Notes under the pieces: model-generated
Told to the model about the DNA's origin: nothing
Seen by the model: the letters and a program-made list of their open reading frames with translations, nothing else
Database searches by the model: none
Assembly: GCF_000092205.1 (NCBI RefSeq)
Contig: NC_014216.1
Location: forward strand, 1,555,742-1,619,741
Direction: 5' to 3'
Source: Desulfurivibrio alkaliphilus AHT 2
GTDB lineage: Bacteria > Desulfobacterota > Desulfobulbia > Desulfobulbales > Desulfurivibrionaceae
DNA: 64,000 nucleotides
Program-made: the position numbers and the translations under genes
Part shown: piece by piece, positions 9,103-62,856 of the stretch
How positions within the stretch are numbered: position 1 is the stretch's first letter
Layout: every line of letters starts with the position of its first letter

Positions 9103-9936
9103 ATGATGATGATGTCAAACCAGGGTCCTTTTTTTCGGCCATACCACCCCAGCCATGGCTGGCGATTGCTGGGCCTGCTGCTGGTGCTGATGGTTTTGGG
9201 GGCCTGTGGCAAACCTCAGGTAATCTCCAGCCCCACCGGCAAGAGCCGGGTGGAAGCACCGCATGATTCTCCGGCCAGAATCCCCCCCACCCAGCGGCCC
9301 TACCAGATCCAAGGAACCACCTATTACCCGATTCCTTCCGCCCACGGCTACTCTGAAACCGGCATCGCCTCATGGTACGGGCGCAAGTTCCATGGCCGCC
9401 GCACCTCCAACGGCGAGATTTACGACATGCATGCCATGACCGCCGCCCATAAAACCTTGCCCATGGACACCCACCTGCTGGTGGAAAATTTGGAAAACGG
9501 CCGGGAAATCACGGTGCGAATCAACGACCGGGGGCCGTTCGTGCGGGGCCGCATCATTGATCTGTCTTACCGGGCCGCCCAAAAACTGGGAATGGCCGAA
9601 CAGGGCCTGGCCCAGGTAAGAATCACCGCCCTGGGGGCCACCGAGCGTTACGTGGAAGATGGCCAGCTCCAGCAGCGTTTCACCGCCACCCCAGATTTTG
9701 AGCATGGTGAATTTTATGTCCAGGTCGGCGCCTTTACGGTGGCGGAAAACGCCACTCGCCTGCGGGACCAATTGCAGGAGTGGGGCCGCACGGCGGTGAT
9801 CCGGGAATATGACCACGGCGGCAGGCTGTTTCACCGGGTCCAGGTGGCCGCCGGGGATACTTTAAGCGGCGCCCTGCGCCTGGAACGGGTGCTGATCGAA
9901 GCGGGATACACCGACGCCTTCGTCGTTGCCCGTTGA
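9103..9936 (+). CDS. rlpA: RlpA-family septal/peptidoglycan lipoprotein with SPOR domain
   Basis: 277 residues. The N-terminal signal ends in a lipobox (LGACG), so the protein should be a lipoprotein. A double-psi beta-barrel (about 85-180) has the RlpA landmarks GIASWYGRKFHGRRTSNGE, MTAAHKTLP and VRINDRGPFVRGRIIDLS. A C-terminal SPOR domain (about 203-277, beginning FYVQVGAF) binds denuded glycan strands. In other bacteria RlpA is a lytic transglycosylase acting on such glycans at septa. AAGGA lies just before a run of four ATG codons; the second or third ATG has the best spacing. The stop codon touches the start of a terminator-like family 1 repeat. Confidence 0.93.
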   Translation: MMMMSNQGPFFRPYHPSHGWRLLGLLLVLMVLGACGKPQVISSPTGKSRVEAPHDSPARIPPTQRPYQIQGTTYYPIPSAHGYSETGIASWYGRKFHGRRTSNGEIYDMHAMTAAHKTLPMDTHLLVENLENGREITVRINDRGPFVRGRIIDLSYRAAQKLGMAEQGLAQVRITALGATERYVEDGQLQQRFTATPDFEHGEFYVQVGAFTVAENATRLRDQLQEWGRTAVIREYDHGGRLFHRVQVAAGDTLSGALRLERVLIEAGYTDAFVVAR

Positions 9937-10044
9937 AAAAATCGCGTCAGCACCGCATTTTGCGGCGATCGGCCCGGCTTGCGTACCTGGGGTACGCGGC
10001 GCCGGGCCGCTTGCCGCAACCTGCGGCACTGACGCGATTTTTTT
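9936..10044. repeat. Family 1 repeat, GC-rich subtype acting as a likely terminator
   Basis: The outer arms AAAAAATCGCGTCAG and CTGACGCGATTTTTT are perfect inverted repeats, so on either strand the stem is followed by a T-run. The interior matches the other family 1 copies (CGCA, GCGATC, GGCC, GTAC...GTAC, AACCTGCGGCAC) but is more GC-rich. It directly follows the rlpA stop codon, so it probably terminates rlpA transcription. Confidence 0.75.
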
Positions 10045-18675: not shown

Positions 18676-18713
18676 CTTGGTTATAATCTCACGGTTAAAG
18701 TTGGCTTACAAAG

Positions 18714-18863
18714 GTAAGCGTTCAGCCGTGCCGCATCTTCGGGCGATCAGCCAAGCTTACGTACAGGGGGTACGCTGCGCCTGGCTGCAAGACCAAACCT
18801 GCGGCACGGCTGTTCGCTTACGGCCCGTTAGGTTGGCAGTTTAGCACCCCTGGTGAACGGTTA
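18714..18863 (+). repeat. Family 1 dispersed palindromic element, full-length copy
   Basis: The core runs from GTAAGCGTTCAGCCGTGCCGC to its inverted counterpart ending CGCTTAC (18714-18821), with GTACAGGGGGTAC near the centre. A conserved roughly 41-base tail with GGCCCGTTA and GGTGAACGGTTAC follows. The same core plus tail recurs at about 19.8, 29.3, 30.2 and 62.7 kb; at 47.2 kb only the core is present. It lies between purC and the fructokinase gene. It encodes nothing obvious. Confidence 0.85.
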
Positions 18864-18864
18864 C

Positions 18865-19782
18865 TTACAAAGAGGGCATTTCCGGGGTCGCCCCGGGTTG
18901 GCCGGCCACGTAAGCGCCCCGTCGGTTGGCCAGGGCCAGAATTTCCGGCCAGGGCAGCTTTTGCCGGCAGGCGGCAATCAGCGCCGCAAAGAAGGCGTCC
19001 CCCGAGCCCACCGTATCGGCCACCTGCACCGGCTCACCGGCCGCCGCCCAGGTTTGCTCCGCCGTCCGCACCCAGGCCCCCGCTGCCCCTTCGGTGACCA
19101 CCAAGGCCTGGAGCCGGTAACGAGCGATTATCGCGGCGGCAAGTTGTTCCCGTGGCGCGGAGGGCGGCAGCCCACCTTCCCCGGCCTCGATCTTTCCCAT
19201 AGGCGACAGACCAAGCCAGAGGCCAAGCTGGGTCAACTCATCGCCGTTAACCTTGACCAGGTCGGCCTGCTCCAAAGATTCCACGACCAGTTCGCGGGTG
19301 GTAAACGGCGGGCGCAGATTAACATCATAATAGCGGTAGCGGGCCGCCACCGCCAAGCGCCGGATGGCCTGCCGGGAGCGGGGATCGCGCTGGGCCAGGG
19401 TGCCGAAAATCAGGCTGAAGCCATCTTCCCCATCTTTCCCATCTCCCTCCTCGGCGGCGGCCAGGGCCTGCTCCGGGTCGATGTTATCCCAGGCGGCGGG
19501 GGCGACAATATCGTAAACGGGCTCGCCGTCGGCCCCGAACTCCACCCGTACCTGACCGGTGGGCAACGCGGGATCGCGCTGCACCCCGGCCAGCGGCAAA
19601 CCAAGCTCGGCCAGCCGGTCCAGGGCAGCTCGGCCCAACTCATCGTTACCCACCCGGGTAATCACCCCCACCGGCAGGCCCAGGGCCGCCAGATGGTAGG
19701 CGACATTGATCGGCGCCCCGCCCAGCACCTGCCGGGCCGGAAAAATATCCCAAACCACCTCGCCAACGGCCACAAACTTCAT
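18865..19782 (-). CDS. PfkB-family carbohydrate kinase, probable fructokinase
   Basis: 305 residues of the ribokinase/PfkB fold. The start MKFVAVGEVVWDIFP and the substrate-side GGAPINVAYHLAALG match fructokinases. The C-terminal DTVGSGDAFFAALIA carries the catalytic Asp and anion hole. A short Glu/Asp/Gly-Lys-rich insert (about 112-122) is unusual. AAGGGG lies 5 bases before the ATG. It sits beside sucrose synthase and sucrose-phosphate synthase, so it most likely phosphorylates the fructose released from sucrose. Both flanks are family 1 repeats, so co-transcription with the sucrose genes is uncertain. Confidence 0.88.
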   Translation of the reverse strand: MKFVAVGEVVWDIFPARQVLGGAPINVAYHLAALGLPVGVITRVGNDELGRAALDRLAELGLPLAGVQRDPALPTGQVRVEFGADGEPVYDIVAPAAWDNIDPEQALAAAEEGDGKDGEDGFSLIFGTLAQRDPRSRQAIRRLAVAARYRYYDVNLRPPFTTRELVVESLEQADLVKVNGDELTQLGLWLGLSPMGKIEAGEGGLPPSAPREQLAAAIIARYRLQALVVTEGAAGAWVRTAEQTWAAAGEPVQVADTVGSGDAFFAALIAACRQKLPWPEILALANRRGAYVAGQPGATPEMPSL

Positions 19783-19808
19783 AACTGCCCCTTGCCTGTT
19801 ACCTGATC

Positions 19809-19958
19809 TAACCGTTCACCAAAGGCACCATCCTGCCGGTTGAACGGGCCGTAATCGTTCAGCAGTGCCGCAGGTTCGGGCAAGCAGACAGGCGCAGCGT
19901 ACCCCCTGTACGTAAGCCTGGCTGATCGCCCGAAGATGCGGTACTGCTGGACGATTAC
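19809..19958 (-). repeat. Family 1 dispersed palindromic element
   Basis: A full-length copy in the opposite orientation to the 18.7-kb copy. The tail TAACCGTTCACC leads into core arms GTAATCGTTCAGCAGTGCCGC and a right end GGACGATTAC. It fills nearly the whole gap between the fructokinase gene and sucrose synthase and reaches the sucrose synthase stop codon. Confidence 0.85.
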
Positions 19959-22354
19959 TACCTGATCTGTTCCGCCCTGGCCTTGTAAAAAAGGTGGTAC
20001 AGCACCTCGCTGTACTGATTAAGCCGCATCTTGGCCTGTTGGGAGGTGGAGTAGCGCCAAAAACCATACACCTTGGTCAGCCGGGTCAACTCCCGGCAGT
20101 GGCGCTGCCAGGTGAAGCGTTCCCGGGCCCGCTCCAGCGCCCTTTGGGAAAAGCCTTGCCAGTAACGGGGGTTTTCCTCGCAATGGTGAAAAAACTCGCG
20201 CAAACGGGCGGTCATTGCCGGCTGGTCGGTGGGGTTGATCAGAAAGCCCGATTTTTCATGCTCAATGATCTCCAGCGGCCCCCCGAACTGGGTGGCAAAA
20301 ACCGGCAGGCCAGAATGCATGGCCTCTAAAATGGTCAAACCAAAGGCCTCGAACAGCGCCGGCTGGACGAACACCCCCCGCCGGTCGGCCATGATCCGGT
20401 AGGCCTCGCCGGTTTCGGCCTTGCCCAGAAATTTGCCGACCCAGCGGACCTGCCCCCGCAGGCCGTACTGCTCAATGATGCCATGCATCTTGCGGATCTC
20501 TGCCGCCTCTTCGGCATCCTTGGAGCGCTCCGGGTCGGTGACGCTGGCCACCATGATCAGGTTGACCCGCCGACGCAGCTCCTCATCCTGGCCGTAAGCC
20601 TCCACCAGCCCGGTGAGGTTTTTAATCCGGTCCAGCCGGGCGATGGTAAAGAGCGGCGGCAGGTCGAGATTCTCCAGGCGGCCCAGGCAATCGGCATCTT
20701 CTTGTTCAAACAGCAGCCGGGTCACCTCCCGGCGCATCTTCACCTTGCGCCCCCGCTTGCGATTATAGGGAAAATAAACCTCCTGGTTAACCCCCGGCGG
20801 GATGACGTTGAAGCGAGGATGAAAAAGGTTGATGCCGCTGATCACGTTAACCAGTCCGGGCATGGTGAAAAACTGGTAGGATTCATACTGGCCGATGCTG
20901 TTGTCGGTGCCGGTGATCTCCTGGGCGGTGCTGGTGATGATGAAGTTGGCCTGGTTCATGGCCAGCAGGTCGGCCATGAACTGGATGGAAAAATTGTACT
21001 CCGGCTCAAACTCATCCCAGTACAGGTCGCTGAAGAGATATTTCGATTTCTCAAGGGCATGGGCGATATTGCACTGGATCACCCCCATGTTTTTGGAAAG
21101 CCTGGTGGCCACCAGGTTGCCGTCGGAATAATTGCCCACCAGCAGGTCGGGCCGGCCGCCAAGCTCACGCCGGATCTCCTCTTCGGCATCCACCGCAAAC
21201 TGATCGAGATAGGGCCAGATCCGAAACCGCGACAGCCAGTGCGGCACCACCGAGTTGTCGGGGTAACGGAAAGGGACCCGCAGGATCCAGACATCATCGG
21301 TGTCGTAAACCTTTTCCAGCCGCTGATCGGCGCTGGTGCCCTCGTTTTCCGGGATCAGCCGGCTGACAATCAGGATTTTAGGGGCAATTTCAAGCCCCGC
21401 ATCGCGCAGATCCTGGGCCAGAAAATCCTCCAGGGCCTTGGCCTGATCCAGCACGTAAACCACCTGGCCGCCGGTGTCCGGCCGCCCCAGCACGTTTTCC
21501 TGACCAAACCAGCCGTGGGGGCTGATCAGGGCCACGCTGGAAACCATGGGGATGCGCGAGAGAAACTCCTCCAGGTTGGCCTCGTCGGGCTGCTCCAGAA
21601 TATCCTGCAGCATGTGCATGGTCTCCAGCATCCGGGGCAGACTGTTGCCCCAGCCGGCAAGAAAACCCAGCCGCCCCAGGCGTTGGCTGATTCTGGCCAG
21701 ATCATCCGGGTACCGGCAACGTTCGAGAAAGTCCATGGCACTGCTAAGCGCCTCTTCCAGTTCCTCGGGGCTGCGCACCAGGGAGCCGTCCAGCAGCAGT
21801 TGGGTACCGTGCAACTGGTGCAGCTTGAGAAATTCGTAGAGCGAGCGGTTCCATTTCTCGGGATGATTGGACAGATTGCCGGACATATGACGGTTTAAAA
21901 ACTTGATCCCCTGGCCGATGGTATTGGGGTCCTTCAGGGTGGGGCCGTAGTCGTAGAAGGGGGCCAGGTTGATGGCCAGGGTGCGCTGCTGGGGAGGCAG
22001 GTTGGGCCTGATCAAACGTTCCTTGATGGCCAGAAAGTCGATGAGGGTGACGGGGATCAGCCGGTCGTCATCTTCGCTCAAGGCAAAGATCCGGCAACTG
22101 GCCCGGCGGTGCCGGTAGAGGATGATCAGCAGATCATCGGCCAGCAGCACCTCCTGGACTTTGCGCAGAAACCGCCAGGCCCCGGCCAAATCACCTTCAG
22201 CGGCGGGGCGCTGGCCGGCAAATTGCTGGAAGGCCAGCAGGATATCGTTGCGCAGCAGCAGCGGCGGTTCGGGTCGCTGAAGCGACAGGAGAAACTCCCG
22301 CAGGGGCGCGACATCCTGTTCATCAACGAAACATCCCAGATCATTTTCCATCAT
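19958..22354 (-). CDS. Sucrose synthase
   Basis: 798 residues, the usual length for plant and bacterial sucrose synthases. The N-terminal half is the regulatory region (with FYDYGPTLKDPNTIGQG). The GT-B half includes SPHGWFGQENVLGRPDTGGQ, VIPPGVNQEVYFPY and the E-x7-E motif in ALFEAFGLTILEAM. It reversibly converts sucrose plus NDP to NDP-glucose and fructose. The ATG at 22354 overlaps the TGA of the upstream synthase by one base (TGATG), with AAAGGA upstream, so translation is coupled; a TTG at 22357 is the alternative. Next to SPS/SPP and fructokinase it forms a sucrose cycle that can feed ADP-glucose to glycogen. Confidence 0.95.
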   Translation of the reverse strand: MMENDLGCFVDEQDVAPLREFLLSLQRPEPPLLLRNDILLAFQQFAGQRPAAEGDLAGAWRFLRKVQEVLLADDLLIILYRHRRASCRIFALSEDDDRLIPVTLIDFLAIKERLIRPNLPPQQRTLAINLAPFYDYGPTLKDPNTIGQGIKFLNRHMSGNLSNHPEKWNRSLYEFLKLHQLHGTQLLLDGSLVRSPEELEEALSSAMDFLERCRYPDDLARISQRLGRLGFLAGWGNSLPRMLETMHMLQDILEQPDEANLEEFLSRIPMVSSVALISPHGWFGQENVLGRPDTGGQVVYVLDQAKALEDFLAQDLRDAGLEIAPKILIVSRLIPENEGTSADQRLEKVYDTDDVWILRVPFRYPDNSVVPHWLSRFRIWPYLDQFAVDAEEEIRRELGGRPDLLVGNYSDGNLVATRLSKNMGVIQCNIAHALEKSKYLFSDLYWDEFEPEYNFSIQFMADLLAMNQANFIITSTAQEITGTDNSIGQYESYQFFTMPGLVNVISGINLFHPRFNVIPPGVNQEVYFPYNRKRGRKVKMRREVTRLLFEQEDADCLGRLENLDLPPLFTIARLDRIKNLTGLVEAYGQDEELRRRVNLIMVASVTDPERSKDAEEAAEIRKMHGIIEQYGLRGQVRWVGKFLGKAETGEAYRIMADRRGVFVQPALFEAFGLTILEAMHSGLPVFATQFGGPLEIIEHEKSGFLINPTDQPAMTARLREFFHHCEENPRYWQGFSQRALERARERFTWQRHCRELTRLTKVYGFWRYSTSQQAKMRLNQYSEVLYHLFYKARAEQIR

Positions 22355-29251: not shown

Positions 29252-29270
29252 CAATGCACCTTAAATTGTG

Positions 29271-29420
29271 TAACCTTTCACCAAGGGTATTAACTTACAG
29301 GTATAACTGGCCGTAAGCGTTCAACAGTGCCGCAGGTTTGGTCTTGCAGCCAGGCGCAGCGTACCCCCTGTACGTAAGCCTGGCTGATCGCCCGAAGATG
29401 CGGTGCTGCTGAACGCTTAC
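29271..29420 (-). repeat. Family 1 dispersed palindromic element
   Basis: A full-length copy in minus orientation: tail TAACCTTTCACC, then core from GTAAGCGTTCAACAGTGCCGC to GAACGCTTAC. It lies between the flavoprotein gene and the small dihaem gene. This is the closest full-length relative of the deleted copy at 30.2 kb, 800 bp away. Confidence 0.85.
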
Positions 29421-29749: not shown

Positions 29750-30201
29750 GCTTGAGCGAGCCCATTGAGCAGATTCTGCCCGACCTGGCAGCCCTGGAAG
29801 CATTCGGCCGCGAGCTGGGCCGGCAAGCCGCCGCCGGGGACATCATCTGCCTGTACGGCCCTTTGGGCGCCGGCAAGACCACCCTTACCAGGGCCATTGC
29901 CGCCGGCCTGGAGGTGCCGCCCGAACAGCCGGTGACCAGCCCCACCTTTGCCCTGATCCACGAACATCAGGGGCGGCTGCCGCTTTTTCATCTCGACCTG
30001 TACCGTTTGGGCGGCGATGAGGATGAACTGCTGGAGTTGGGGATTGAGGACTACCTTTATGGCGATGGCGTCTGCGTCATCGAGTGGCCGGAAAGGCTGG
30101 GCGGCCTGCTGCCGGCAAGACACCTGGATATCCGGCTGGCCTTTGCCGTCCCGCCGGCCCCGGAGACGTCCAGAATCGTAACCGTTCACCGGGGGCACTA
30201 A
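29746..30201 (+). CDS. tsaE: tRNA t6A biosynthesis ATPase TsaE
   Basis: 151 residues. Walker A is LYGPLGAGKTTLTRA (about 37-51), followed by the family's TSPTFALIHEH and LFHLDLYRL and the later CVIEWPERL. TsaE is the ATPase partner of TsaB/TsaD in making threonylcarbamoyl-adenosine at tRNA position 37. The ATG overlaps the stop of the dihaem gene. The last seven codons and the TAA fall inside a family 1 repeat (TAACCGTTCACC from 30179), so the repeat defines this C-terminus. A Sua5-type enzyme of the same pathway is encoded at 33.5-34.1 kb. Confidence 0.95.
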   Translation: MSLSEPIEQILPDLAALEAFGRELGRQAAAGDIICLYGPLGAGKTTLTRAIAAGLEVPPEQPVTSPTFALIHEHQGRLPLFHLDLYRLGGDEDELLELGIEDYLYGDGVCVIEWPERLGGLLPARHLDIRLAFAVPPAPETSRIVTVHRGH

Positions 30202-30267
30202 CCTACAGGTATAACGGGCCGTAAGCCTGGCTGATCGCCCGAAGATGCGGTGCGATTGAACGCTTAC
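30179..30267 (-). repeat. Family 1 element with internal deletion
   Basis: The tail (TAACCGTTCACC to TAACGGGCC) and the far end (CTGGCTGATCGCCCGAAGATGCGG to CGCTTAC) are kept. The middle of the core, including one arm and the central GTAC palindrome, is absent. The join occurs at CGTAAGC, which is present twice as a direct repeat in intact copies. The element overlaps the 3' end of tsaE. Confidence 0.8.
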
Positions 30268-36824: not shown

Positions 36825-36958
36825 CACCTCGGTTCAAGAGTTGCTGATCTGGCTCTGGCGAGCTACGGGTAAGCACCCGCGGGGTGCCAAAGCTTGCGGC
36901 TTTCTCCCGATGCCGCGCACTCCAGCACAAAGGCCGAGCCCACCCGCAAGCTGAGGTG
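36825..36958. other. Structured intergenic segment between TetR gene and greA
   Basis: Nested inverted repeats: CACCTC (36825) with GAGGTG (36953), AGCTTGCGG (36891) with CCGCAAGCT (36944), and a local CGGGT-AAGC-ACCCG hairpin near 36866. It lies between convergent genes and could be a two-way terminator, a repeat fragment or a small RNA. No T-rich terminator end was found. Confidence 0.35.
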
Positions 36959-36978
36959 ACCTGCAAACGCTTACAAGA

Positions 36979-37689: not shown

Positions 37690-37904
37690 GCAGGGCAACG
37701 TCAAAGTCGCCTGGGAACTGGACGGGGGCCGCGAAACCCGGTAGCGACGGGTTCGCCCGCCGCTGGGCGCCCCTGGCAATTGGCAGCGCAGGAGCCCCGC
37801 GGGCGCCTCGGAGGCGGGCATGGATGCCCGCCGAGAATGAGTCGCTACCGGGTTTCGCGGCCCCCACCCCGGTGCAACAACCAATGACTTTGACGTTGCC
37901 CTGC
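37690..37904. repeat. Family 2 repeat inside a nested perfect palindrome
   Basis: The inner arms at 37724-37748 and 37841-37865 are a perfect 25-bp inverted repeat around a 92-bp loop that contains its own hairpin (GGCGGGCA/TGCCCGCC). The outer arms GCAGGGCAACGTCAAAGTC and its exact complement (37690-37708, 37886-37904) add another perfect 19 bp. The inner unit recurs at 46.4 kb in the opposite orientation. It starts 10 bp beyond the stop of the TPR-barrel gene. Confidence 0.85.
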
Positions 37905-44579: not shown

Positions 44580-46376
44580 ATGAAAAATATTAGAAATTTC
44601 AGCATCATCGCTCATATCGACCACGGCAAATCCACCCTGGCCGACCGCTTTATTCAACACTGCGGCTCGGTAAGCGACCGGGAGTTCAAAGACCAGCTCC
44701 TGGACAACATGGATATCGAACGGGAGCGGGGGATCACCATCAAGAGCCAGACCATCTGCTTGCCATACCAGGCCGCCGACGGCCAGCAGTATGTGTTCAA
44801 CCTGGTGGACACCCCCGGGCACGTTGATTTCAGCTACGAGGTCTCCCGCGCCCTGGCGGCCTGCGAAGGGGCACTGCTGCTGGTGGACGCCGCCCAGGGC
44901 ATCGAGGCCCAGACCCTGGCCAACCTCTATCTGGCCATGGAAAATGACCTGGAGATCATCCCGGTGATCAACAAGATCGATCTGCCCGCCGCCGAACCGG
45001 AAAAAGTGGCCCTGGAAATCGAAGAAGACCTGGGGCTGGAGGCTGAGCGGATCCAGCTCTGTTCAGCCAAGACCGGCAAGGGGGTGCCGGAGTTGCTGGA
45101 GGCCATCGTCAAGTACCTGCCGCCACCCACCGGGGATCCGGACCTGCCGCTGCAGGCGATGATTTTCGATGCCCAGTACGACTCCTTCCGGGGCACCATC
45201 ATCTCCTGCAAGGTGGCCAACGGCCGGGTCAAGGCGGGCGACCAGATCAGCTTCTGTTCCACCGGCCGCAGCCACAAGGTGGAAGAGGTGGGCCATTTTC
45301 GCTTTAAAAAGGAACCGGCCAAGGAACTTGCCGCCGGCGAGGTTGGTTATATTATCGCCGGGATCAAAAACATCGCCGATGCCCAGGTGGGGGACACCAT
45401 CACCCTGAAGGAAAACCCCTGCGCCAAACCACTGTCCGGCTACCAGCCGGCCAAGCAGGTGGTCTTTTCCTCCATCTACCCGGTCTCCACCGAGGATTAC
45501 GAGGACCTGGCCACCGCCATGGAGAAGCTGACCCTAAACGACGCCTCCCTGACCTTCCAGAAAGATTCTTCCTCCGCCCTGGGTTTCGGCTTCCGCTGCG
45601 GCTTTCTGGGGCTTTTGCACCTGGAGGTGGTCCAGGAACGGCTGGAGCGGGAGTTCGGCCTGTCGCTGATTCTCACCGTGCCTTCGGTCAACTACCATGT
45701 CTACCTTAACGATTCCACCATGGTGGAGGTGGACAACCCCGCCTATTACCCGGACCCGGGCAGCATCCAGCGGGTGGAAGAGCCCTACATTAAAGCCACC
45801 ATCATGATCCCGGAGCGCTACATGGGGGCGGTGATGAACCTCTGCATGGAGCGCCGGGGGGTTAACAGCAATCACCACTACCCCATGCCGGGCCGCATCG
45901 AGTACACCTGCGAGCTGCCGCTAAGCGAGGTGATCTACGACTTTTACGACCGCCTCAAGTCCCTGACCCAGGGGTACGGCTCCTTCGACTACGAGATACT
46001 GGATTACCGTACCGGGGACCTGGTGAAAATGGACTTGCTGGTCAACGGCGAGCGGGTGGACGCCCTGTCGCAACTGGTCCACCGGGATAACGCCCGGGCC
46101 CGGGGGCTGTCCGCCTGCGAAAAACTGAAGGAAGAGATCCCCCGCCACATGTTCAAGATCGCCATTCAGGCGGCCATCGGCGGCAACATCATCGCCCGCA
46201 CCACCGTTGCCGCCATGCGCAAGGACGTACTGGCCAAGTGTTACGGCGGCGATATCACCCGCAAGCGCAAACTGCTGGAGAAACAGAAGGCCGGCAAGAA
46301 GAAGATGAAGACGGTGGGCAACGTGGAAATCCCCCAGAGCGCCTTCCTGGCAGTACTGAAATCCGACGACTCGTAA
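44580..46376 (+). CDS. lepA: Elongation factor 4 (LepA)
   Basis: 598 residues, the standard length. The GTPase domain has [14 protein letters not shown], the switch region with [20 protein letters not shown] and NKIDLPAA. Later features are the LepA-specific C-terminal domain with [20 protein letters not shown] and the Lys/Arg-rich tail [18 protein letters not shown]. It is a ribosome-associated GTPase that acts on stalled or mis-translocated ribosomes. It is transcribed alone, divergent from rpoH. Its 3' side carries a truncated family 1 fragment and a family 2 palindrome. Confidence 0.97.
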
Positions 46377-46383
46377 ACCTCCA

Positions 46384-46421
46384 GCAGCACCGCACCTTGC
46401 GGCGATCGGCCCGGCTTGCGC
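46384..46421 (+). repeat. Truncated family 1 fragment
   Basis: CAGCACCGCACCTTGCGGCG and the following GATCGGCCCGGCTTGCG match the left half of the GC-rich family 1 copy at 9.94 kb. The match stops abruptly at the point where that copy has its central GTAC palindrome. A family 2 element begins about 20 bp further on. Confidence 0.6.
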
Positions 46422-46442
46422 CGTGAAATTTAGTAGAAGTCG

Positions 46443-46610
46443 GTTGTTGCCATGGGGTGGGGGCCGCGGCAACCGGTAGCGGCTCATTCTCGGCGGGCAT
46501 CCTGCCCGCCTCCGAGGCGCTGGGGGCCTCCTGCGCGTCCATGCGCCCGGCCCGCCAGCGAACCCGCCGCTACCGGTTGCCGCGGCCCCCGTCCAGGCTG
46601 CAAGGGGCTT
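46443..46610. repeat. Family 2 palindromic repeat, second copy
   Basis: Perfect 25-bp arms at 46459-46483 and 46566-46590 enclose an 82-bp loop with the same CGGCGGGCAT and GCCTCCGAGGCG blocks as the 37.7-kb copy, in inverted orientation. The arms differ from that copy at four positions, and every change is matched in the opposite arm. It lies between convergent lepA and engB. Confidence 0.8.
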
Positions 46611-46621
46611 GCATGTTGGCC

Positions 46622-47235: not shown

Positions 47236-47342
47236 GTAATCGTTCAGCAGTGCCGCAGGTGAGGTCTTGCAGACAGGCGCAGCGTACATCAGTACGTAAG
47301 CCTGGCTGATCGCCCGAAGATGCGGTGCTGCTGAACGATTAC
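47236..47342 (-). repeat. Family 1 element filling the hisG-engB gap
   Basis: The core is complete in minus orientation (GTAATCGTTCAGCAGTGCCGC to CTGAACGATTAC). The centre has changed to GTACATCAGTAC, still a palindrome. The conserved 41-base tail seen in other copies is missing. It starts 11 bp before engB and ends 3 bp after hisG. Confidence 0.85.
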
Positions 47343-62705: not shown

Positions 62706-62856
62706 GTAAGCGAACAGCCGCACCGCATCTTCGGGCGATCAGCCAGGCTTACGTACAGGGGGTACGCTGCGCCTGGCTGCTTGCCCGAACCTGCGGCACT
62801 GCTGTTCGCTTACGGCCCGTTATGCCTGTAGGTTAGTACCTCTGGTGAACGGTTAC
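62706..62856 (+). repeat. Family 1 dispersed palindromic element
   Basis: A full-length copy in plus orientation: core from GTAAGCGAACAGCCGCACCGC to CTGTTCGCTTAC with central GTACAGGGGGTAC, then the conserved tail GGCCCGTTATGCC through GGTGAACGGTTACC. It lies between the ABC exporter and the DHH gene, filling most of that gap. Confidence 0.85.

What the first reader, a model, noticed from the sequence alone, without database searches (positions are those of the whole stretch)
18714..18863. Family 1: about 150-bp palindrome-plus-tail element dispersed through the window
Seen directly: six copies carry the long complementary arms with a central GTAC...GTAC palindrome (about 9.94, 18.7, 19.8, 29.3, 47.2 and 62.7 kb), plus one internally deleted and one truncated copy. 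Five of the eight also carry a conserved tail of about 41 bases on one fixed side (TAACCGTTCACC through TAACGGGCC). Every copy lies between genes, in both orientations. The asymmetric tail argues against a plain terminator and for a mobile or RNA-forming unit.
Basis: partly seen in the sequence, partly recalled or inferred. Interest (0 to 1): 0.75.

Follow-up and report, generated by a model that had tools for sequence, protein, structure and literature searches.

The report
Mobile stop-codon hairpins of Desulfobulbales
This bacterium carries about 200 copies of a short jumping DNA element that folds into a long hairpin, and many copies sit right behind the stop codon of a gene, where the two arms of the hairpin have stayed matched while their letters changed.

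Summary
Confirmed. The window lies in Desulfurivibrio alkaliphilus AHT2. The 151-bp unit is a 108-bp imperfect hairpin plus a 43-bp tail, with about 200 places in the chromosome. It is a miniature transposable element: 38 of 80 tailed copies with a locatable end have exact 8-bp target duplications (0.5 in shuffles), and the sister species lacks the four full tailed copies of the window. Ends (GTAA.CG) and duplication match IS66; the mobilising enzyme is inferred. A REP/RAYT link is not supported.

Beyond an ordinary MITE: (1) 53 of 68 tail-less copies have the hairpin end at a stop codon (other end 4 of 68). Ten tail-less hairpins are shared with the sister species at the same gene end; there, 30 stem pairs changed on both arms and stayed paired. 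(2) Related hairpins occur in 49 of 58 genomes of the order. In one genome, 0 of 14 nearly identical, fresh copies abut a stop codon on that side, while the one diverged copy does. Retention rather than targeting is likely. Open: 21 of the 30 paired changes are transversions, and one-sided changes favour G.U on the strand opposite the mRNA; neither fits a plain terminator. Selection on the fold and arm-to-arm copying both remain possible.

The parts
18714..18864 (+). Tailed unit (type A): hairpin 18714-18821 plus tail 18822-18864, flanked by the 8-bp repeat TTACAAAG (18706-18713, 18865-18872). The neighbouring gene on the - strand (18865-19782) ends at the right border.
   Evidence: not found at the syntenic place in G002
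19808..19958 (-). Tailed unit (type A), flanked by TACCTGAT on both sides (19800-19807, 19959-19966)
   Evidence: not found in G002
29270..29420 (-). Tailed unit (type A), flanked by TAAATTGT on both sides
   Evidence: not found in G002
62706..62856 (+). Tailed unit (type A); no recognisable target duplication (2 of 8 positions)
   Evidence: not found in G002
30178..30267 (-). Internally deleted tailed copy (left arm plus tail, right arm missing)
   Evidence: not found in G002
9936..10043 (+). Tail-less hairpin (type B) starting on the last base of the TGA stop (9934-9936) of the gene 9103-9936. Shared with G002 at the same stop codon; nine stem pairs changed on both arms and still Watson-Crick.
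47236..47342 (-). Tail-less hairpin (type B); not found in G002
46373..46420 (+). Truncated left arm of a hairpin, running into a second dispersed repeat (about 46442-46621)
36869..36974 (-). Strongly diverged hairpin, probably an old member

Best explanation
It is a miniature, protein-less transposable element (MITE) with ends and target duplication of IS66 type. Shown: tailed copies sit between 8-bp target duplications, begin and end with GTAA.CG / CG.TTAC, most of those checked are missing from the same places in a sister species, and three shrunken derivatives of 29, 38 and 40 bp with similar ends also carry exact duplications. Inferred: an IS66-family transposase acting in trans moved them. 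Second step, partly shown: copies whose tail-free hairpin end lies next to a stop codon are retained. Tail and duplication decay, while the long hairpin stays paired through changes on both arms and keeps its internal mismatches, so that it sits as a lasting structure at the 3' end of the gene. Inferred and least certain: the retained hairpin is useful to the host there (mRNA 3' end, termination, or blocking of transcription or replication) and not merely rewritten into a palindrome by arm-to-arm copying.
For: 8-bp duplications: 38/80 exact, 55/80 at most 1 mismatch, other lengths at background. An end-pair scan of all 1.8 Mb then held gave 94 distinct pairs with exact 8-bp repeats; 65 are 150-159 bp long and the only two over 300 bp are IS66 elements of 2.2 and 2.4 kb with GTAAGCG ends (those two loci were fetched because they hold IS66, and most loci held were fetched because they hold the hairpin). 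The IS66 copy of this genome has one end GTAAGCGCTCAGCA, against hairpin ends GTAAGCG[T/C]TCAGCA. Published IS66 traits: IR starting GTAAGCG and 8-bp DR (PMC11946415, passages); IR GTAACCGTCCGGGCA in some members (PMC12888890, passages). Mini-units with exact duplications: L270, L268, L260. Absence in syntenic G002 of the four full tailed window copies. Placement: stop within -12..+3 of the hairpin end in 53/68 tail-less and 51/88 tailed copies versus 4/68 and 10/88 at the other end, 28/36 versus 1/36 in G002. In G029, 0/14 copies, 11 of them with duplications, are there, while the one diverged copy without a duplication is (stop at -5). In-place paired change: 30 WC-to-WC double changes in 10 orthologous hairpins; 33 coincident changes versus 7.4 expected, maximum 16 in 5000 placements. 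Covariation: 0/500 shuffles reach the score.
Against: No IS66 gene was found in G029, which holds fresh copies, and IS66 was found in only 8 of 28 genomes, own included; the one copy here is a 379-aa open frame. So the mobiliser may be gone or different. Copies of D. alkaliphilus with exact duplications are already at stops in 23/38, which fits target bias or fast selection as well as slow retention. One tailed copy with its duplication is shared with G002 (2176804 and L317), so tailed copies are not all recent. 21 of the 30 paired changes are transversions (outer stem 11 of 15), against 79% transition-type switches in B. cereus terminators (PMC5381666, passages); that speaks for concerted rewriting of both arms rather than stepwise compensation. 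One-sided stem changes are mostly A.C on the mRNA-like strand (A 65:7, B 70:9 against G.T), not expected from selection on the upstream mRNA. The search core covers left-arm positions 18-39, so constancy there is partly a matter of how copies were found.
Confidence: 0.55

Rival explanations
1. Purely selfish MITE: paired changes arise because one arm is used as template to rewrite the other (quasi-palindrome correction) or because copies convert each other, and copies survive behind stop codons only because they do least harm there. No host function.
For: 21 of 30 paired changes are transversions, unlike stepwise compensation through G.U. Runs of neighbouring pairs change together (positions 6-9 in the 1152529 pair). 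Mixed-arm copies exist in type A at positions 8, 9 and 14. Coding DNA is 90.6% of the genome (PMC5016858, passages).
Against: The mismatch positions are unchanged in 54 of 60 ortholog cells and four of them recur in G007 and G029, two of them mostly also in G043, which wide arm correction should erase; but left-arm constancy at 23, 24, 32 and 34 is partly built into the search core. The same orientation at stop codons is not explained by harmlessness, since the other end is rarely there. Some tail-less copies have outer stems of their own, which conversion between copies does not explain.
Confidence: 0.33
2. The transposase targets DNA around stop codons in one orientation; retention plays no part.
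For: 23 of 38 copies with exact duplications already have the hairpin end at a stop codon; the target is slightly AT-rich.
Against: Fresh copies in G029: 11 of 14 with duplications, 0 of 14 at a stop on the hairpin side. No clear target consensus in 55 sites.
Confidence: 0.12
3. The units are ordinary bidirectional intrinsic terminators that happen to be similar.
For: Position behind stop codons; very stable hairpins; some tail-less copies have A-tract/T-tract outer stems. Terminators are known to evolve by compensatory change (PMC5381666, passages).
Against: A T run of 4 or more at the 3' side in only 15 of 68 tail-less and 0 of 88 tailed copies. 8-bp duplications. Conserved tail. One-sided changes avoid G.U on the sense strand, and paired changes are mostly transversions, both unlike B. 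cereus terminators.
Confidence: 0.08
4. REP/REPIN-type repeats moved by a REP-associated tyrosine transposase.
For: Dispersed palindromes at gene ends; REP termini often supply a stop codon (PMC3733652, passages); two Y1-transposase genes in this genome.
Against: 8-bp target duplications, no GTAG end, 108-bp hairpin; no hairpin in the 14 Y1-transposase neighbourhoods taken, both of this genome's among them.
Confidence: 0.02

Closest known systems
IS66-family insertion sequences and non-autonomous derivatives
   Same: Ends starting GTAA.CG, 8-bp target duplication; one end of this genome's IS66 copy differs from many hairpin ends at 1 of 14 bases
   Different: No gene; 29-151 bp; nested third end inside (hairpin ends plus tail end); about 200 copies in this genome; present in genomes where no IS66 was found
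YPAL, ERIC, Correia/NEMIS, RUP (bacterial MITEs; PMC2229807, passages)
   Same: Short, dispersed, mostly folding into long stem-loops, duplications, no transposase of their own
   Different: YPAL duplications vary 3-26 bp and most others have TA ends; here a fixed 8 bp and GTAA ends, and hairpins shared between species with paired changes
REP sequences
   Same: Palindromes near gene ends; can supply the stop codon (PMC3733652, passages)
   Different: 20-40 bp with GTAG or CGTC end; tyrosine transposase; no target duplication (the last recalled)
Intrinsic terminators with compensatory evolution (PMC5381666, passages)
   Same: Hairpin behind stop codons with two-sided changes
   Different: Much longer, usually no T run, constant internal mismatches, mostly transversions, opposite strand bias of one-sided changes
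SPRITE (pneumococcal terminator-like element; PMC10969869, passages)
   Same: Dispersed repeat resembling a terminator
   Different: Described for another host; sequence not compared here

Membership tests
MITE (miniature inverted-repeat transposable element) | Short, non-coding, many copies, terminal inverted repeats | tested here: met
   189 pattern places, 0 in control; ends GTAA.CG / CG.TTAC
MITE (miniature inverted-repeat transposable element) | Target site duplication and sites without the element in relatives | tested here: met
   The intergenic DNA of G002 is too diverged to show a clean single target copy.
IS66-derived MITE | IR starting GTAAGCG or GTAACCG | tested here: met
   with PMC11946415 and PMC12888890; position 5 varies over all four bases
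IS66-derived MITE | 8-bp duplication | tested here: met
IS66-derived MITE | Parental transposase present with matching ends | tested here: inconclusive
   One TnpC gene here (379-aa open frame) with end GTAAGCGCTCAGCA; IS66 in 8 of 28 genomes, own included; none found in G029 although it has fresh copies
IS66-derived MITE | Moved by IS66 transposase | not testable with these tools
   Needs a transposition assay
REP / RAYT system | GTAG (or CGTC) end and 20-40-bp palindrome | tested here: not met
   Ends GTAA; 108-bp hairpin
REP / RAYT system | Tyrosine transposase gene flanked by the repeat | tested here: not met
   0 matches in 14 neighbourhoods, both of this genome included
Intrinsic terminator | Hairpin followed by a run of T | tested here: not met
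   T run of 4 or more in 15 of 68 tail-less and 0 of 88 tailed copies
Known RNA family | Match to Rfam at gathering score | tested here: not met
   0 in the window; at 9.94 kb only matches far below gathering score, mostly microRNA hairpins

The most novel reading that the evidence does not exclude
An order-wide MITE lineage of Desulfobulbales feeds a standing pool of structured gene-end elements: hairpins that land behind stop codons become fixed, lose their mobile ends, and are kept by selection as a specific folded structure with conserved internal loops. That structure is read on the strand opposite to the upstream mRNA (antisense RNA or single-stranded DNA), so it is a gene-end device that is neither a classical terminator nor a REP.
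Probability: 0.22. Interest if true: 0.82.

Novelty: new variant of a known kind. Interest (0 to 1): 0.62.

Why it matters
As far as I recall, good evidence that a host keeps individual MITE copies is scarce in bacteria. Here one genome shows a series from 29-bp and 151-bp mobile forms with intact target duplications to tail-less hairpins shared with a sister species at the same stop codons, whose stems changed in matched pairs. That makes the question 'can a MITE become a gene-end structure?' directly testable in two cultured species (AHT2 and AMeS2). 104 of the 156 hairpins read abut a stop codon with their tail-free end, about 4% of the 2,676 protein genes.

Tried and rejected
RAYT/REP link: Y1-transposase genes occur in 34 of 38 genomes searched, own included, but no hairpin lies in the 14 neighbourhoods I chose from the list. 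Rejected as far as tested.

IS66 as proven mobiliser: kept as an inference only, because no IS66 was found in most genomes searched.

Sense-RNA terminator model: T-run count, strand bias and transversions speak against it. The strand bias is unexplained: in type A it is mostly G>A on the + strand (60, against 9 C>T), while T>C is not raised (4) and the tail shows no asymmetry (36 against 41), so a strand-biased mutation in stems is not excluded.

Rfam: nothing at gathering score; the sub-threshold matches are mostly microRNA hairpins, plus a few other RNAs.

Integron attC sites were thought of because of hairpins behind stop codons; not tested.

Rows dropped. Of 189 pattern places, 183 were listed by the tool (95 + 88). 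Six are the second arm of a copy already counted and one had no DNA held, leaving 176 read. 10 had no recognisable right arm and 10 more had other hairpin lengths, leaving 156 (88 tailed, 68 tail-less). In the TSD test, 8 of 88 tailed copies had no locatable tail end. In two counted as misses there (598914, 600797), the tail end seems misplaced and a shifted repeat is visible. Of 19 G002 hairpins with a G000 hairpin near a matching flank, I kept 9 tail-less ones as orthologous (same orientation, left flank ending within 11 bp) and dropped 10. The window 9936 pair was added from the rows 'hit but no hairpin near', because that copy was missing from my list. On re-check one dropped pair (L317 and 2176804) proved to be a tailed copy shared at the same target, and one (L346) lies at a different place; the other dropped ones were not re-examined. 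The shared tailed pair has five changed stem positions, one of them on both arms. Two of the ten orthologous copies (9936 and 2540612) are not among the 68 tail-less ones, being found otherwise or of other length. In one search a motif that itself includes left-arm positions 16-19 found 18 hairpins in 29 relatives' loci and 36 hairpins in the G002 loci. From I used 29 of 30, 14 of 15 and 9 of 10 loci of G007, G029 and G043; the three left out were added. Relatives' samples are the best-scoring matches, not random ones. The phylum search scored only 13 candidates per genome, so its negatives are weak.

Literature: no listed title or abstract start describes this element in the searches IS66 + MITE + '8 bp' (none held all), palindromic/miniature insertion/stop codon/stem-loop (3 papers), IS66/miniature/non-autonomous (15 of 342 listed), Desulfobulbaceae/palindromic/intergenic/repeat (12 of 4,105) and MITE/terminator/compensatory (12 of 135). 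The genome papers of the two species hold no word starting with transpos or palindrom in their main text. The library lacks most subscription journals.

Full report
What is there. The window is bases 1,555,742-1,619,741 of a single-contig genome of 3,097,763 bp. That size equals the published Desulfurivibrio alkaliphilus AHT2 chromosome (PMC5016858, passages); the order is Desulfobulbales. Six full hairpins, one deleted and one truncated copy lie in the window, plus one far-diverged hairpin at 36.87 kb.

Copy number. A 22-nt piece of the left arm, with up to 3 mismatches, occurs 98 + 91 times in the chromosome and never in the reversed control. A 24-nt piece of the tail occurs 44 + 42 times, again with none in the control. 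20 of those 86 tails have no listed core match within 200 bp; they include truncated, diverged and very short units. That makes about 200 places; more diverged ones would be missed. Of 156 readable full-length hairpins, 88 have the tail (type A) and 68 do not (type B).

Mobility. For type A, 80 of 88 copies had a locatable tail end. 38 of these 80 have an exact 8-bp repeat on both sides and 55 have at most one mismatch, against means of 0.47 and 0.76 when right flanks are shuffled. Mean identity is 0.80 at length 8 and 0.24-0.31 at every other length from 2 to 15. Of 68 type B copies, 2 are exact and 4 have at most one mismatch. The window is syntenic with the sister genome G002 in blocks of mostly 77-89% DNA identity. 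Contig lengths of G002 equal those of Desulfurivibrio sp. AMeS2, described as D. dismutans with 86.84% ANI to AHT2 (PMC12142623, passages). The four full type A copies of the window, the deleted copy and the 47.2-kb hairpin are not found there; only the 9.94-kb type B hairpin is shared. The intergenic DNA is too diverged to show clean single target copies. One tailed copy elsewhere (2176804) is shared with G002 together with its target sequence (L317), so some tailed copies predate the split. Shrunken units of 29, 38 and 40 bp also carry exact 8-bp repeats (L270, L268, L260).

Which transposase. GTAA.CG ends and an 8-bp duplication are the signature reported for IS66 (PMC11946415 and PMC12888890, passages). 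The only IS66 gene found here (match at 2119221-2120087, 379-aa open frame) lies between ends GTAAGCGCTCAGCA and GTAAGCGCTCAATG. Many hairpins end GTAAGCGTTCAGCA, some GTAAGCGCTCAGCA. Two IS66 elements of another family of the order carry exact 8-bp duplications (G028). Against a simple story, IS66 was found in only 8 of 28 genomes, own included, and not in G029 with its fresh copies. I call the IS66 link likely, not shown.

Structure. On 77 aligned hairpins, 26 of 33 predicted pairs have changes on both sides. 97.0% of cells are paired, against 83.9% in shuffles, and no shuffle of 500 reaches the covariation score; sliding the partner by one to three columns drops pairing to 22-37%. Position 5 shows all four Watson-Crick pairs in both types. 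Six positions (16, 17, 23, 24, 32, 34) mostly hold the same mismatch or wobble. The search core covers left-arm positions 18-39, so constancy of the left side at 23, 24, 32 and 34 is partly built in; 16 and 17 are outside it. In hairpins of other genera found with the covariance model, 16 and 17 hold the same mismatches in 23 of 29 (G007) and 9 of 9 (G029) but only 2 and 4 of 8 (G043); position 23 is the same in 29 of 29, 9 of 9 and 7 of 8, and 24 in 23 of 29, 9 of 9 and 7 of 8.

Same place, changed letters. Among 48 hairpins taken from G002, nine tail-less ones lie behind the same gene as a hairpin of D. alkaliphilus, and the 9.94-kb copy makes ten. Over 370 stem cells, 30 changed on both arms from one Watson-Crick pair to another, 29 changed on one side and 3 others changed on both sides. 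Coincident changes number 33, against 7.4 expected from random placement (maximum 16 in 5000). The six mismatch positions were unchanged in 54 of 60 cells. In the 9.94-kb copy both genomes have the hairpin starting at the stop codon, with outer stems AAAAAATCGCGTCAG and AAAAACATTCGGCAG, each with its own matching arm. The mode of change is odd: 21 of the 30 are transversions (11 of 15 in the outer stem; tail changes are 120 transitions to 91 transversions). In B. cereus terminators 79% of switches are of the transition kind and 68 of 76 with a known intermediate went through G.U (PMC5381666, passages). So both arms may be rewritten together, by arm-to-arm copying or conversion, with or without selection for the fold.

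Placement. Gene calls used a codon model trained on 44 long open frames of the window. A stop codon lies within -12 to +3 of the tail-free hairpin end in 51 of 88 type A, 53 of 68 type B and 23 of 38 exact-duplication copies; at the opposite end in 10 of 88, 4 of 68 and 3 of 38. 4.8% of intergenic bases of the window lie within 9 nt of a stop on either side. In 17 A and 22 B copies the stop codon starts at the second base of the element, usually the TAA of GTAA. A second method by open-frame length gives 23/38, 27/50 and 52/68, against 4, 8 and 12 at the other end. In G002, 28 of 36 against 1 of 36. In G007, 17 of 29 against 3 or 18 against 0; the thirtieth locus is not at a stop on that side. 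In G029, 14 near-identical copies, 11 with duplications of at least 7 of 8 (shuffled mean 0.93, maximum 6), give 0 of 14 on that side and 1 of 14 on the other. The fifteenth locus, diverged and without duplication, has a stop at -5. G043 gives 1 of 9 at each end, the tenth not near a stop. New insertions need not be at stop codons, and the pattern looks like retention; the exact-duplication copies of D. alkaliphilus leave room for target bias.

Distribution. With the covariance model, 49 of 58 genomes of the order (own included) have matches at E of 0.001 or better, up to 67 (the cap) per genome. In a draw of 297 genomes of the phylum, 6 match at 1e-6: five of the same order and one weak single match outside it (low sensitivity). 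A named scan of one genome per species with one subfamily motif found 100 stretches. The 80 listed come from eight assemblies: one Desulfurivibrio isolate and seven MAGs, five labelled Desulfobulbaceae or Desulfobulbales and two only Deltaproteobacteria or Proteobacteria.

What it does. Position, stability and matched arms suggest a gene-end role, but I could not show one. T runs of 4 or more follow only 15 of 68 type B and 0 of 88 type A hairpins. One-sided changes outside the constant positions give A.C on the mRNA-like strand, which is G.U on the other, in 65 against 7 (A) and 70 against 9 (B) cells, in tandem, convergent and other gene contexts alike; also in G002 (43:6) and 18 relatives' hairpins (37:12). 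Cells share ancestry, so these are not independent events; in the ten ortholog pairs the count is 15 against 6. Either the structure counts on the opposite strand, or stems mutate asymmetrically. This is the most interesting open point.

Verdict. A new, order-wide family of IS66-like MITEs, a known kind, with an unusual second life as lasting hairpins behind stop codons.

Noticed in passing
window 37693-37882 and 46442-46621: A second dispersed repeat in inverted copies (61 nt at 89% and 64 nt at 77%), G+C-rich, lying beside the truncated hairpin at 46.4 kb. A similar sequence is seen beside other hairpin copies (L271; G000 near 2357761, 2486373, 2588567).
   Followed up: no
L034 (235987), L089 (283980), L163 (2540629), L182 (3090809): In four copies the GTAC apex is replaced by another palindrome (GGAGGGGACAGTTTT...AAAACTGTCCCC or a part of it); two others (120097, 2422783) have an ATATAGCGCTGCTATA apex. 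Apex exchange looks modular.
   Followed up: no
L262, L115, L128 and relatives L194, L196-L198: A sister subfamily with outer stem of the kind TAAGCGGTCACGGGG, seen in D. alkaliphilus and in another genus, with a GTGATC motif downstream in several.
   Followed up: partly
L270 416-444, L268 407-444, L260 421-460: Units of only 29, 38 and 40 bp with GTAA-type ends and exact 8-bp repeats; among the shortest mobile units I know of (recalled, not searched).
   Followed up: partly
L061 1311-2842: The single IS66 gene found in this genome: a 379-aa open frame, ends present on both sides, no target duplication seen by eye.
   Followed up: partly
L188 (G054): A hairpin directly followed by a second, partial one in the same orientation.
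   Followed up: no
L326 (G002) and G000 near 603167: Two hairpins of opposite orientation at one gene boundary in both genomes; the second one in G000 was outside my pattern list.
   Followed up: no
G000:C1:2096256-2096591 and 1189104-1189430: Two long (about 320-aa) Y1-transposase genes without hairpins around them.
   Followed up: yes
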